Assembly: GCF_007833795.1 (NCBI RefSeq)
Contig: NZ_CP032702.1
Coordinates: forward strand, 620,001 to 684,000
Reading direction: 5' to 3'
Origin: Candidatus Pantoea soli
GTDB lineage: Bacteria > Pseudomonadota > Gammaproteobacteria > Enterobacterales > Enterobacteriaceae
DNA length: 64,000 nucleotides
The notes under the pieces are model-generated. The model saw only the letters and a program-made list of their open reading frames with translations. It ran no database searches and was not told where the DNA came from. A program made the translations under genes and the position numbers. Within the stretch, counting starts at the first letter, position 1. Every line of letters begins with the position of its first letter. Positions 1-7,687 of this stretch are shown here, piece by piece.

Positions 1-1
1 C

Positions 2-532
2 TACGATGCAGAAACGGGTATGCACTATAACCGTTTCCGCTACTATGATCCGGATGCGGGACGGTTCATCAGTCAGGACCCGATAGGGTTGGCGGGTGGG
101 CTGAATCTTTATCATTATGCGCCGAACCCGCTGAACTGGATCGACCCACTGGGGTTGAGAAAATGTGATCCTGAAAAATGGGATGTAAGTTCTCATCAAA
201 GTAATAAAAATGCTGTTAAAGGTAAAAATCCTGGACTGGACTCTCATCATATTGGTCAGAAGAATATTATGAAAGATCTGGTTGAAGGATATAATTCTGC
301 GACAGCTCCAGCCATATTAGTTTCTCGAGTGGGCCACACCGTATCTAAAGAAGGATTAGGCATTGTATCCAGAAGTAAAATAAATCCCAAGACTGGATTA
401 CCATTTGCAAATGCCAGAGATGTCGTAGCGAGGGATATAAGGAAGTTAAGAAGGGTGTATCCTGAGATACCAAATAGTAAACTTCAGGAACTTATCAAAT
501 TGAACAAGTCTATGTATCCTGAATTAAGATAA
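2..532 (+). CDS. Rhs protein, 3' end only: core terminus plus C-terminal toxin tip
   Basis: The frame is open from the left edge, so this is the tail of a larger rhs gene. The first ~52 codons are classic Rhs/YD-repeat core terminus (YDAETG, NRFRYYDPDAGRF, then a PLNWIDPLGL hinge) that normally closes the Rhs cocoon. After the hinge (about nt 158) the sequence changes to an unrelated ~125-residue tip, as expected for the cleaved, variable toxin. The tip has a DSHHIGQ motif, a later VGHT and an ARDI/LRRVYPEIPN tail. Paired histidines suggest a metal-dependent nuclease, but I do not recognise the family. The immunity candidate follows 10 bp downstream. This is the only tip in the island whose core-to-tip frame is unbroken in the visible part, so it is probably the one currently expressed. 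Delivery by a type VI secretion system is typical for Rhs proteins but cannot be seen here. Confidence 0.9.
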   Translation, partial: YDAETGMHYNRFRYYDPDAGRFISQDPIGLAGGLNLYHYAPNPLNWIDPLGLRKCDPEKWDVSSHQSNKNAVKGKNPGLDSHHIGQKNIMKDLVEGYNSATAPAILVSRVGHTVSKEGLGIVSRSKINPKTGLPFANARDVVARDIRKLRRVYPEIPNSKLQELIKLNKSMYPELR

Positions 533-542
533 AGAGGCATGT

Positions 543-893
543 ATGAATCTTGACGAACAAGTAGTTAATGCTATCTTCAAAGAGTTGTTTGAAGATAACT
601 CAGAGCGTTATAGGCAGTCTCTCAGCAAACCAGTAAATAATGATACTGATACCTATGGTAAAGCAAGAAATGCTCTGGCTAATCTAAGTCAGGCAGAAAA
701 GGAATGTATATTTAAATTTATAGATCTCGCGATCGCCGATAGTGCTTCGGTCATATTAAGTACTCTGGATGGTTCCAATTACCCTGATAATATTGATGGT
801 GATTTTATTGTGACCTATAAAGATGATGAAATACAAGGAAGTCTGCAAGATATATTTATAGAAAAAGCTGAAAGTAAAGGTATATATAATTAA
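543..893 (+). CDS. putative immunity protein for the adjacent Rhs tip
   Basis: A 116-residue acidic protein beginning MNLDEQVVNA, with an AGAGG ribosome site about 6 bp before the ATG and only 10 bp after the toxin stop. Size, acidity, absence of a signal peptide and position directly after a toxin tip are those of cytoplasmic Rhs immunity proteins. I do not recognise the family; function is inferred from position. A terminator-like hairpin follows at once, so the rhs-immunity unit probably ends here. Confidence 0.7.
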   Translation: MNLDEQVVNAIFKELFEDNSERYRQSLSKPVNNDTDTYGKARNALANLSQAEKECIFKFIDLAIADSASVILSTLDGSNYPDNIDGDFIVTYKDDEIQGSLQDIFIEKAESKGIYN

Positions 894-932
894 AAAAAGC
901 CGGAAGCGATCTTAACGATCCTTCCGGCTTTT
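892..932. terminator. hairpin terminator after immunity gene, shared with convergent symE
   Basis: GCCGGAAGCGATC (899-911) pairs, with one bulge, with GATCCTTCCGGC (917-928), flanked by an A-run on the left and a T-rich stretch on the right. It can end transcription of the immunity gene rightwards and of symE leftwards. Nearly the same hairpin recurs at 10401-10441, again next to a symE sequence. Confidence 0.7.
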
Positions 933-936
933 CTCT

Positions 937-1152
937 TTAGCTGCCAGTTGTCAGGGTCAGGCAGCACTGTTTAACCGTCACCGTTACCTTCTGACTAACC
1001 CTGTACCCCGCCTCTCGCAGCCATCTACCGGACAGGTTCAGCGTCGGAGAGCTGGTATCGCCGCGCTGCGGCCGGTATCCCACAAGGTACTGCCGTTCTG
1101 TCTTTGCCGCTTTATCTGCGGCGGTGCCTGACTTAGAATGCCTCTCAGCCAT
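937..1152 (-). CDS. symE: SymE-like toxin-antitoxin family protein
   Basis: The 71-residue product has the SymE signature: YLVGYRPQ, then LNLSGRWLREAGYR and a final QKVTVTVKQCCLTL. SymE is a LexA-controlled protein with an AbrB-like fold; E. coli SymE is repressed by the antisense RNA SymR and affects RNA or nucleoid integrity. Start chosen at ATG 1152, with an AAGAAG ribosome site; an in-frame TTG five codons upstream is less likely. symE genes commonly lie beside rhs loci in Enterobacteriaceae, and two degraded symE fragments lie elsewhere in this island. I could not confirm a SymR-type antisense promoter. Confidence 0.8.
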   Translation of the reverse strand: MAERHSKSGTAADKAAKTERQYLVGYRPQRGDTSSPTLNLSGRWLREAGYRVSQKVTVTVKQCCLTLTTGS

Positions 1153-5536: not shown

Positions 5537-5967
5537 CTTTAGAGCAGCATGTGTTATCAGACATGGATGGCTTTTCTCCAAAGCCAATAATTATCAATGA
5601 ATGGGAGCCTGTCGCGGATATTCTTTCTGAAGCTTTTCAGTGGAAAGGTTCAAAAATCGATTGGAACTCTTTATTAAAACATGCTTATCGGCCAATTAAA
5701 TTTGATTCTATAAAGGTTAACTTTGATGTTAAAGAGTTCATAAAAGATAGTGGCTTATATGACTTCTTAAACAAAAAGGATAAAATTTACTATATCAATG
5801 ATTCCTCACTTGATTTTGCGGTTTCTCTGGATCCGAAGATTTTCCTTGAGTTTGTGATTTATGTGATCCAAAATGTTCCTCAGCATCACTATTTTTTTGA
5901 CGAAAAAGCAAAGTGGTGTTTAGTTATTACTTCTGAAGGTTATATTGATTTCGGTGTCAGAAATTAG
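5521..5967 (+). CDS. putative immunity protein (cassette G)
   Basis: A 148-residue acidic protein (MESKVTLEQHVLSDMDG...) whose ATG overlaps the end of the tip frame by 16 bp, the same geometry as cassette C. No signal peptide or membrane segment. Family not recognised; role inferred from the pairing. Confidence 0.65.
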   Translation: MESKVTLEQHVLSDMDGFSPKPIIINEWEPVADILSEAFQWKGSKIDWNSLLKHAYRPIKFDSIKVNFDVKEFIKDSGLYDFLNKKDKIYYINDSSLDFAVSLDPKIFLEFVIYVIQNVPQHHYFFDEKAKWCLVITSEGYIDFGVRN

Positions 5968-6282
5968 TTGTTGCAGCCATTAATTGTGATGAGAGCCTGT
6001 AATTATTTATAAAAAGCCACTGGTTAAAGGTTAGACTCTATGGCTTTACATCATTCAATGATCTAAAGTTTATTATCTTACGCTAATGCTGGATCGGTAA
6101 TTCTACTTTTGACGCATCCTTGATAGCCAGATAAATAGTTTTTTTCACTGAGTTATCTATAGATAACACCTTGCCTTTCTTTATACCTTCCTGGAACATG
6201 CTGCTTTGTTATTTGATAGCGTGAGTCGTATTGATAGCTTTGCGTAAGTCCGGCGGATAATTGATCAACATTTTATCAGGTT
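5968..6282. other. AT-rich spacer with a minus-strand ORF fragment
   Basis: No gene is well supported here. On the minus strand, 6083-6199 holds a 38-codon frame (MFQEGIKKGKVLSI...) that may be the tail of a degraded gene, but it lacks a convincing ribosome site. The stretch separates immunity gene G from the next core remnant. Confidence 0.35.
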
Positions 6283-6759
6283 CAATATTACGATGCGGAA
6301 GCAGATTTGTACTATAACCGGTTCCGCTACTGTGATCCGGATGCGGTGCGGTTTATCAGTCAGGACCCGGTAGGGCTGGCGGGAGGGCTGAATCTTTATC
6401 AATATGCGCCGAACCCGCTCAGTTGGATTGAGCCATTGGGGTTGAGTAAATGTAAGGTTATCGAAGCAAAGAATCGACCCGAGGCTATAAACCTGGCTAG
6501 ACAACATTCTCAAGTCCCAGGGAGTTCAAGAGGCGGAAAAGATATTCATATTGATGAACTGAATGCAACCAGCCAGTTTAAGAATTGGTGAATGATGAAA
6601 TCTAAAGGTGCTACAAAGCTGGGTCGAGAATACAGGTATGGTTCAAATAAATGGTTCGAACATCCAGATGCGGGTTTACCTAATATACCGAAATATCATG
6701 ATTCAGGTCATGTGCATTCAGTGAACTCTAAGGGTGAAAAGGTTATATTTACATGGTGA
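6283..6759 (+). pseudogene. displaced Rhs core end plus toxin tip with one stop (cassette H)
   Basis: The frame begins QYYDAEADLYYNRFRYC, keeps a well-preserved core end (GLAGGLNLYQYAPNPLS) and hinge WIEPLGL, and enters a tip starting SKCKVIEAKNRPEAINLARQ. A single TGA at 6589 interrupts it after ATSQFKNW; the same phase continues with KLGREYRYGSNKWFEHPDAG and a His-rich KYHDSGHVHSVNS end to TGA at 6757. The HxxGHVH cluster suggests a metal-binding nuclease, but the family is not recognised. Suppression or one reversion would restore it. Confidence 0.8.
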
Positions 6760-7346
6760 AGAGTGAAAGGGTAATGAAATTCCCAGTACCAGACTGGAAA
6801 AGGTTGTTTTCGAAGGAGTTTGATAAAATTACAACCTGTTTCTGCTATCAATATGATATTGATGAGAGTTTTTATGGGCCTTATGGTTTTGACTCCTCTA
6901 TCGCTAAGAACATCATTAATGATTTCATAAGCGATTTTGTTTTTTATGATGTTGTTGAAAGAAAGTTAACTAACGTTGATAACGTTTATAGGAATGGATT
7001 GTATATTTCCTCAGATGGAAACTCCTTAGGTAACGAAATTGAAATTTATTCAATGGCAGTTAAGAAAAATGAATTAAGGAAGGGAAGGGGGTTAAATGAA
7101 ATTGAGGTTGAAAAAAAACCTATATTGTTAAGTGTGGATAGTGAATGTAAAATACCAAATGAAGTCATTGTTCACTTGATAAATGATGATATTCCTTTTT
7201 TTATTGTGAATGATTACATGCCTGAAGCCGGTAAAAGTATAATGATTTTTTCAGAGGAAATGGTTAAGCGGTTTTTGGATGTTGTGAGAAAATATAATGT
7301 TGATATTTGTGCGATTGATAATATAGATTTGATGAAGTCATGGTGA
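6753..7346 (+). CDS. putative immunity protein (cassette H)
   Basis: A 197-residue protein starting MVKSERVMKFPVPDW at 6753, overlapping the toxin stop by 7 bp. An alternative ATG at 6774 has a better-placed GAAAGGG ribosome site and would give 190 residues. Acidic, cytoplasmic, no recognised family. Intact although the toxin carries a stop. Confidence 0.65.
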   Translation: MVKSERVMKFPVPDWKRLFSKEFDKITTCFCYQYDIDESFYGPYGFDSSIAKNIINDFISDFVFYDVVERKLTNVDNVYRNGLYISSDGNSLGNEIEIYSMAVKKNELRKGRGLNEIEVEKKPILLSVDSECKIPNEVIVHLINDDIPFFIVNDYMPEAGKSIMIFSEEMVKRFLDVVRKYNVDICAIDNIDLMKSW

Positions 7347-7459
7347 GAAATTTAATTTGAAACTGTTATTTTTATTAAGCTACTGATGGGTTTTCCTGGC
7401 AATACTAAGCAGAATCGCTACAACGTAAGCCGCGCAATCGGGGACTGAATACGGCGTGT

Positions 7460-7687
7460 TATTACGACCGGTTCCGTTACTATGGCCCGGATGCGGATCG
7501 GTTCATCAGTCAGAACCCGATAGGATTAAGAGGCGGGACAAACCTGTATGCCTATGCACCTAACCCGTTCAACTGGATCGATCTGTTAGGGCTGAGTAAA
7601 TGTTCAGCAGATAAAACACCAAAAACACGAAATTCAGCCAGAAAACAATTGAGAAGTCGCGGTATAAATAAGCAAATCACACTTTAG
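7460..7687 (+). pseudogene. displaced Rhs core end with truncated tip (cassette I)
   Basis: The core end YYDRFRYYGPDADRF, QNPIGLRGGTNLYAYAP and hinge WIDLLGL are clear. The tip (SKCSADKTPKTRNSARK...) stops at TAG 7685 after only about 33 residues, much shorter than the other tips, so the tip appears cut off. No standard immunity gene follows. The DNA after 7687 appears to have a different origin. Confidence 0.7.

What the first reader, a model, noticed from the sequence alone, without database searches (positions are those of the whole stretch)
1..7687. Tandem array of displaced Rhs toxin tips in which toxins are decaying and immunity genes are kept
Behind the active rhs 3' end I count at least seven displaced tips (B at 1194, C at 1888, D at 2779, F at 4176, G at 5149, H at 6283, I at 7460). 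All are damaged or unattached: missing core (B, D), stop in the core (C), two stops (F), two frameshifts (G), one stop (H), truncation (I). Every immunity-type frame paired with them (1373, 2244, 2993, 4667, 5521, 6753), plus the orphan at 3804, is open, with plausible starts. Seen: the frames. Known: Rhs loci carry orphan tips that can replace the active tip by recombination. Inference: selection now keeps the array as an immunity library against siblings rather than as a toxin reserve.
Basis: partly seen in the sequence, partly recalled or inferred. Interest (0 to 1): 0.72.

Follow-up and report, generated by a model that had tools for sequence, protein, structure and literature searches.

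The report
Rhs tip array losing toxins first
Behind a bacterial toxin-injector gene lies a row of discarded toxin tips with their antidote genes; comparison with sister species suggests that the toxins rot first while most antidotes are kept, which fits a known idea and adds a measured example of it.

Summary
Tip C keeps an open Ntox21 toxin domain. Immunity B is C-terminally frameshifted, and an Imm50 gene left of the window is split by an insertion element, so "every immunity gene is kept" is too strong.
Across Pantoea the asymmetry holds on average. Of 56 sorted displaced modules, 39 have both frames open, 13 a broken toxin with open immunity, 4 both broken, none the reverse (partly hand-sorted). 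Orphan E belongs to an ART-HYD1 toxin; the three Pantoea genomes carrying it have only toxin stubs beside it, and its dN/dS is 0.20. In sister genome G019 toxin F is wrecked while immunity F stays open. But toxins F, G and H here broke recently: toxin F and G dN/dS is below that of their immunity genes.
The model is known (V. cholerae immunity arrays, Serratia orphan RhsI). Toxin-first loss by self-poisoning is not excluded; expression is untested.

The parts
1..532 (+). displaced tip A: residual Rhs core (to 157) and open toxin frame; the core match starts at least 43 bases left of the window
543..893 (+). immunity gene A, 116 aa, open; homolog 92% identical and open in G048, frame-broken homolog in G027
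891..931 (+). terminator-like repeat that recurs in other Rhs loci
   Evidence: sequence, recurrence; not listed by the scan
1179..1358 (+). toxin B, about the last 60 residues only, no core
1373..1612 (+). immunity gene B, 79 aa, C-terminally frameshifted relative to relatives of 87-95 aa
1846..2001 (+). core remnant C with two stops
2002..2259 (+). toxin C, Ntox21, open
2244..2693 (+). immunity gene C, 149 aa, same length as its nearest relatives
2818..3021 (+). toxin D, last 68 residues, no core
2993..3601 (+). immunity gene D, 202 aa, DUF3885; 84% to P. wallisii
3745..3801 (+). 18-residue C-terminal stub of toxin E (ART-HYD1 family)
   Evidence: weak by itself, E 3.6; supported by place and by DNA alignment with the P. 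wallisii stub
3804..4115 (+). orphan immunity gene E, 103 aa
4170..4337 (+). core remnant F with one stop
4338..4667 (+). toxin F with one in-frame stop
4667..4963 (+). immunity gene F, 98 aa
5147..5228 (+). short core remnant G, frame broken before the toxin
5246..5533 (+). toxin G domain, open but not in the core's frame
5521..5967 (+). immunity gene G, 148 aa
6274..6444 (+). core remnant H, open
6445..6756 (+). toxin H with one in-frame stop
6753..7346 (+). immunity gene H, 197 aa; 30% to the paired gene in G016
7451..7687 (+). core remnant I and start of a truncated toxin; no immunity gene recognised
7705..7951 (+). scraps of a vgrG gene and of the C-terminal end of a PAAR-lipase effector gene
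7987..8745 (+). ankyrin-repeat gene, 252 aa, of the immunity type that follows PAAR-lipase genes in relatives
9150..9356 (+). decayed second ankyrin copy
9629..10132 (-). IS1 transposase gene at the right end of the array

Best explanation
This is an Rhs C-terminal displacement array behind a VgrG / PAAR-lipase / Rhs effector cluster. Each time a new tip-immunity pair replaced the active tip, the old pair was pushed downstream. Shown here: displaced tips have no full-length core, their toxin frames are broken or shrunken more often than the immunity frames, and several orphan immunity genes keep low dN/dS. Inferred: once cut off from the start codon and delivery part, a displaced toxin has little use and is lost first, while the immunity gene keeps its own start and is held by selection because relatives still carry matching toxins. 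The array thus slowly changes from tip-immunity pairs into an immunity array. In this genome B, D, E and the lipase are far along; F, G and H were broken recently; A and C still have open toxins.
For: Genus survey: of 60 displaced junctions 56 were sorted: 39 both open, 13 toxin broken/immunity open, 4 both broken, 0 toxin open/immunity broken; toxin broken in 17 of 56, immunity in 4 of 56, Fisher p 0.003; all 33 full-length tips with a complete toxin frame in the fetched stretch had a frame of 82 aa or more and a coupled ORF. Orphan E: in 23 of 59 loci its relative directly follows an RHYT toxin frame, 20 with a visible Rhs junction; such a toxin is Tox-ART-HYD1; E occurs in 3 of 61 Pantoea genomes, with only a stub directly upstream in each; no such toxin was found in the own genome; E dN/dS G000/G060 0.20, 95% 0.10-0.38, dS 0.64. 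F: displaced at the same site in G019; on the G019 branch toxin F differs at 14/13/7 codon positions 1/2/3 and has stops and gaps, immunity F at 3/3/7 (Fisher p 0.037). ank2 dN/dS 0.15 with the lipase reduced to its end. P. wallisii: toxin J in ruins, immunity J open.
Against: Toxins F and G show lower pairwise dN/dS (0.03-0.05) than their immunity genes (0.10-0.24), and toxin G on the G000 branch is constrained (2/3/20). On the G000 branch toxin and immunity F do not differ (p 1.0). 8 of 37 immunity homologs not coupled to an open toxin are broken; immB is truncated; the Imm50 gene is split; an active-cluster ankyrin gene in G042 has a stop. P. wallisii does carry a distant ART-HYD1 toxin on another full-length rhs gene (38% identity), so E need not be a pure orphan there. 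Promoter-like sites are not enriched (33 against 30.2, sd 4.6). 4 of the 13 one-sided cases come from this genome and two rest on weak grounds; the automatic table alone gave 7 to 1. Immunity function was not tested.
Confidence: 0.56

Rival explanations
1. Toxin-first loss is only an order effect. A displaced toxin that is still read at a low level would poison a cell that loses its immunity gene, so the toxin must die first; afterwards the immunity gene is useless and drifts.
For: 0 of 56 sorted modules with open toxin and broken immunity; 8 of 37 immunity homologs not coupled to an open toxin are broken; immB truncated; Imm50 gene split while its toxin frame is shifted.
Against: Orphan E keeps dN/dS 0.20 over dS 0.64 with toxin stubs beside it in both genomes; immunity F stays open in G019 where toxin F is wrecked (though 6 against 7 changes is few). 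Part of E's divergence may predate toxin loss.
Confidence: 0.25
2. The array is mainly a toxin reserve: displaced tips are kept whole to be recombined back onto the active rhs gene, and the broken ones are failed stock.
For: 39 of 56 sorted displaced modules have both frames open; A and C are open here; toxins F and G stayed strongly constrained until recently; reuse of an orphan tip was seen in Salmonella (PMC3967940, abstract read).
Against: Modules B, D, E and the lipase can no longer serve as stock, yet their immunity genes persist (B with a lesion); one-sided loss hit only toxins.
Confidence: 0.3
3. Nothing is selected: the modules are recent arrivals and lesions fell by chance; open immunity frames only mean little time.
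For: Module B is about 94% identical to E. coli DNA, so arrival can be recent; toxins F and H carry a single stop each; for immunity A the chance of no stop under neutrality is 0.40.
Against: Chance of no stop on the G000 branch under neutrality, substitutions only: D 0.04, E 0.04, F 0.11, ank2 0.0005; dN/dS well below 1 for A, D, E, F, G and ank2.
Confidence: 0.08

Closest known systems
Rhs C-terminal displacement arrays (orphan rhs-CT/rhsI modules; PMC3150448, PMC3967940, bee gut PMC8125069)
   Same: full-length rhs followed by core scraps, toxin tips and small immunity genes
   Different: here many toxins are broken or reduced to stubs while most immunity frames stay open, and the loss was counted across a genus
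T6SS immunity gene arrays of Vibrio cholerae (PMC5361080)
   Same: successive displacement leaves old immunity genes downstream, thought to protect against kin
   Different: there the model is that a new pair replaces the old effector or its end (one case of a shifted effector 3' end is mentioned in the section read); here toxin tips persist at several stages of loss
Orphan RhsI proteins of Serratia (PMC10539506)
   Same: orphan immunity genes behind a complete Rhs pair; one was shown there to protect against a non-self tip
   Different: no function was tested here; that paper contrasts its lone orphan immunity genes with arrays of whole orphan pairs, whereas this array shows both and stages between them
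Recombinase-associated acquired interbacterial defence arrays of Bacteroidales (rAID; PMC12247911)
   Same: arrays of orphan immunity genes
   Different: no recombinase gene was noticed here (no dedicated search); origin here is by displacement

Membership tests
Rhs C-terminal displacement array | full-length rhs gene upstream with RHS repeats | tested here: met
   L009:6881-10918, 1345 aa, PF05593 5e-67, PF03527 8e-12
Rhs C-terminal displacement array | downstream tips with short core remnants and unrelated toxin sequences | tested here: met
   core remnants at U, A, C, F, G, H, I
Rhs C-terminal displacement array | small gene directly behind each tip | tested here: met
   immunity frames A-H; none recognised for I
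T6SS immunity gene array (V. cholerae type) | immunity genes without their effectors behind an active pair | tested here: met
   E with a toxin stub, ank2 with a lipase end; no ART-HYD1 toxin found in the genome. A related lipase gene stands in the active cluster, so ank2 may not be without any target at home
T6SS immunity gene array (V. cholerae type) | orphan genes homologous to paired immunity genes elsewhere | tested here: met
   E: 23 of 59 loci paired with an RHYT toxin; F, G, H homologs paired in other genomes
T6SS immunity gene array (V. cholerae type) | protection against kin | not testable with these tools
   needs competition assays
T6SS-delivered Rhs effector | linked vgrG and PAAR-type genes | tested here: met
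   PF13665 Tox-PAAR-like 5.8e-25 at L009:4563-5825; the vgrG at L009:1266-3413 is named by eye from its sequence; secretion not tested
rAID orphan immunity array | recombinase gene and mobile array | tested here: inconclusive
   none noticed among ORFs, but no dedicated search was made

The most novel reading that the evidence does not exclude
Rhs displacement arrays mature one way: pairs lose the toxin first, while the orphan immunity gene stays under purifying selection, so tip-immunity arrays turn into immunity arrays. The same modules seen at different stages in Pantoea genomes (E in three, F in three, J in two) would be snapshots of that path and would answer why toxins linger in arrays that are kept for immunity.
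Probability: 0.45. Interest if true: 0.6.

Novelty: new member of a known kind. Interest (0 to 1): 0.43.

Why it matters
[quoted passage not shown] Here the same modules can be compared at several stages of loss in related species: where only one partner is broken it is the toxin. That links two known pictures, tip-immunity arrays and orphan immunity arrays, and gives modules (E, F, J, ank2) on which selection can be measured and immunity tested. I saw no such count in the listings of four paper searches (20, 20, 15 and 12 papers shown) or in the parts of seven papers that I read; that is no proof that it is not in print.

Tried and rejected
Tried and set aside: (a) tip A as the active end: rejected by the genome context. 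(b) Pairwise dN/dS as a direct contrast of toxin and immunity in this genome: it goes the other way for F and G. The toxin H value (0.21) was not used because its codon set took in a stray match elsewhere in the array, and the G012/G019 line likewise; one search replaced the latter. (c) Promoter scan: no enrichment; terminator-like sites 10 against 5.5, sd 2.3. (d) NCBIfam for the immunity genes: nothing meaningful. (e) Plasmid DNA search: no match. (f) Rfam on the window: three hits, all right of base 39000. (g) Synteny: of 58 relatives with an smp match 55 were fetched; G001 (contig end), G030 and G041 (fragmented match) were left out; several stretches are cut by contig ends (L012, L038, L047, L052, L065). 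Array parts at this site in 2 of 55 (G060, G019), vgrG-like only in G037. (h) Genus survey: I fetched the stretches with the better core hits and left most weak ones out (mainly 51% identity or less, and other Rhs types); 52 stretches were scanned and 103 junctions kept after filters: 34 full-length, 60 displaced, 9 at contig ends. In one search three displaced junctions stayed unresolved (I, L129_1068, L135_1338) and one (L108_7783) was set aside as 'other'. The 13 and 4 broken cases were sorted by hand; L101_13248 (last 14 residues only) and L114_2662 (no homolog) are the weakest; without them it is 11 to 0. The automatic table gave for displaced junctions 25 both open, 7 toxin broken/immunity open, 1 toxin open/immunity broken, 27 with one side missing or partial; the one reverse case (L132_5718) I set aside because the broken hit is a second, distant immunity remnant and the coupled frame is open. 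Automatic calls corrected by eye: G (scored open though out of frame), L132_1273 (scored broken at its natural toxin end). In one search the 29 'open' displaced toxin homologs include four without a junction, of which at least three are a truncated (D), a full-length (L111) and an already counted broken one (L122), so 29 is too high.
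Full report
What is there. The window is bases 620001-684000 of a 3.76 Mb contig. Its left edge cuts an effector cluster. Upstream (L009) lie a vgrG-type gene, a second gene, a Tox-PAAR-like lipase-type gene, an ankyrin gene and an intact 1345-aa rhs gene with its own small downstream gene. Behind them come a small gene of 162 aa next to a 15-residue core scrap, a displaced tip U, and tip A, which the window cuts. 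So the tip at the window's start is not the active end; it is displaced, and both its frames are open. The genus is Pantoea: G060 matches the contig of Pantoea wallisii LMG 26277 (22210 bases, same match place), and it shares the genus of G000. No call named the species of G000.

The modules in the window. A: open toxin, open immunity. B: about the last 60 residues of the toxin, and an immunity gene that leaves the frame of its relatives near the C-terminus (79 aa against 87-95 in six fetched). This module matches DNA in 21 of 5426 E. coli genomes, 18 of them over at least 80% of the query, at about 94% in the best listed, so it moved recently. C: core remnant with two stops, but a complete open Ntox21 domain overlapping its immunity gene. 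D: last 68 toxin residues and an open DUF3885 immunity gene. E: an 18-residue toxin stub and an open immunity gene. F: one stop in the core, one in the toxin. G: toxin domain out of frame with the core. H: one stop in the toxin. I: core remnant and a short toxin start. Then scraps of vgrG and of a lipase end, and an open 252-aa ankyrin gene of the type that follows PAAR-lipase genes. Just left of the window, the toxin of U is frameshifted near its end, and its immunity gene (PF15594 Imm50, profile 12-118 of 118 right of the element) is split by an element with inverted ends and an integrase-core transposase. That the missing start lies left of the element was seen by eye only; 'IS3-type' is my label.

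Is it more than chance. The nine immunity-type frames of the window hold 1344 codons without a stop; about 111 stops would be expected in random codons of the same base composition. That shows that they are genes, not that they are still selected.

Selection on immunity genes. Pairwise dN/dS (Nei-Gojobori) against relatives: A 0.20, D 0.26, E 0.20, F 0.18 (G019) and 0.10 (G012), G 0.16 and 0.24, ank2 0.15, with no stops in these; two comparisons had saturated silent sites (D/G203, ank2/G019). Active-cluster controls lie in the same range (imm0 0.17, ank1 0.17-0.19), but the G042 copy of ank1 has one stop. Immunity B against E. coli is 0.31 with a wide interval (0.09-1.48). Immunity J between two relatives is 0.47 (0.25-0.96). 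Under neutrality the chance of no stop on the G000 branch would be 0.40 for A, 0.04 for D, 0.04 for E, 0.11 for F and 0.0005 for ank2.

Selection on toxins. With two relatives as reference, toxin G changed on the G000 branch at codon positions 2/3/20. F and G were therefore kept as toxins until recently, and dN/dS cannot yet show decay in this genome. H was not measured cleanly.

Where decay shows. In G019 the F module lies displaced at the same chromosomal site. There toxin F has stops, gaps and branch changes of 14/13/7 over codon positions, while immunity F has 3/3/7. G000/G019 dN/dS is 0.39 (0.22-0.72) for toxin F and 0.18 (0.08-0.37) for immunity F. The branch contrast is modest (Fisher p 0.037), and on the G000 branch toxin and immunity F do not differ (p 1.0). 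In P. wallisii toxin J is in ruins while immunity J is open.

Orphan E. Its family is widespread: 59 loci in one scan. In 23 of 59 it directly follows a frame with an RHYT motif, in 20 of these with a visible Rhs junction; the other 36 had no such frame. The toxin, tested on one example, is Tox-ART-HYD1 (PF15633, 3.4e-14). In Pantoea 3 of 61 genomes carry E, and beside it only a C-terminal stub of the toxin was found: 33 residues with a stop in P. wallisii (E 1e-5), 18 here (E 3.6), 13 in G012 (E 1.8). The two short stubs are weak by themselves; they sit directly before the gene, and the one here aligns with the P. wallisii stub at DNA level. No such toxin was found elsewhere in the own genome, but P. 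wallisii has a distant one (38%) on another full-length rhs gene. E is thus an orphan immunity gene here, with dN/dS 0.20 over dS 0.64.

Genus-wide count. 61 genomes were searched with the core motif; 26 had hits. In 52 stretches 103 junctions were kept: 34 full-length, 60 displaced, 9 at contig ends. Of the 60, 56 were sorted: 39 both open, 13 toxin broken and immunity open, 4 both broken, none with toxin open and immunity broken (sorted by hand). Sign test 13 to 0, p 0.0002; toxin 17 of 56 against immunity 4 of 56 broken, Fisher p 0.003. Four of the 13 are from this genome and cases within one array are not independent. The automatic table is smaller: 25 both open, 7 toxin broken/immunity open and 1 the reverse, the last set aside by eye. 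A location-based count gave 29 open and 17 broken displaced toxin homologs (29 is too high, see Tried and rejected), and 29 open and 8 broken immunity homologs not coupled to an open toxin. So immunity genes are kept better, not perfectly. Displaced tips were broken in 4 of 6 here against 13 of 51 elsewhere (p 0.058).

How it most likely works. Displacement cuts the tip from its start and delivery part. The toxin is then of little use and is lost first; the immunity gene has its own start and is kept while relatives still carry matching toxins. Shown: structure, loss counts, dN/dS. Inferred: benefit to the cell, expression, protection. The main rival is that the order alone is forced by self-poisoning; E and F speak against it but do not exclude it. 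A toxin reserve is not excluded either, since most sorted displaced pairs in the genus are whole.

Compared with what is known. C-terminal displacement with orphan tip-immunity pairs is established (PMC3150448, passages and Discussion read; PMC3967940, abstract read; PMC8125069, passages read). Immunity arrays left by displaced effectors, with protection against kin as the proposed use, were described in V. cholerae (PMC5361080, abstract, start of the introduction and section 13 read), and an orphan RhsI of Serratia was shown to protect (PMC10539506, passages read). rAID arrays are a different route to orphan immunity genes (PMC12247911, passages read). P. ananatis rhs loci vary in tip and rhsI (PMC3942780, passages read). 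The finding is therefore a new member of a known kind; what is added is the staged, counted loss of toxins before immunity genes.

Change after checking: confidence in the best explanation was lowered from 0.58 to 0.56 because the distant ART-HYD1 toxin of P. wallisii and the stop in the G042 ankyrin gene had been left out.

Noticed in passing
L011 (G000:C1:2262000-2281000): A second rhs locus of the same genome with a full-length gene and several displaced tips; one has a frameshifted toxin with open immunity, another a broken immunity remnant.
   Followed up: partly
window 1179-1666: DNA about 94% identical to a module in 21 of 5426 E. coli genomes; in the one examined (RM14723) the rhs tip is annotated as frameshifted. 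Recent transfer between genera.
   Followed up: partly
L022:2818-3924 (G019) and L073 (G057): An ADP-ribosylglycohydrolase gene (PF03747, 2e-64 in G019; named by eye in G057) sits near the end of two Rhs arrays; it could counter ADP-ribosyltransferase toxins in general.
   Followed up: no
L022 and L103 (G019, P. wallisii): Five (G019) and four (P. wallisii) ankyrin immunity-type matches in tandem between the PAAR-lipase gene and rhs, an expanded set behind a non-Rhs effector.
   Followed up: partly
window 891-931: A GC-rich hairpin followed by T residues recurs in many Rhs loci of the genus; it may act as a terminator or as a recombination arm on the 3' side of modules.
   Followed up: no
window 891-1152: Spacer with 82% DNA identity to a stretch in G027; no gene was recognised in it.
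   Followed up: no
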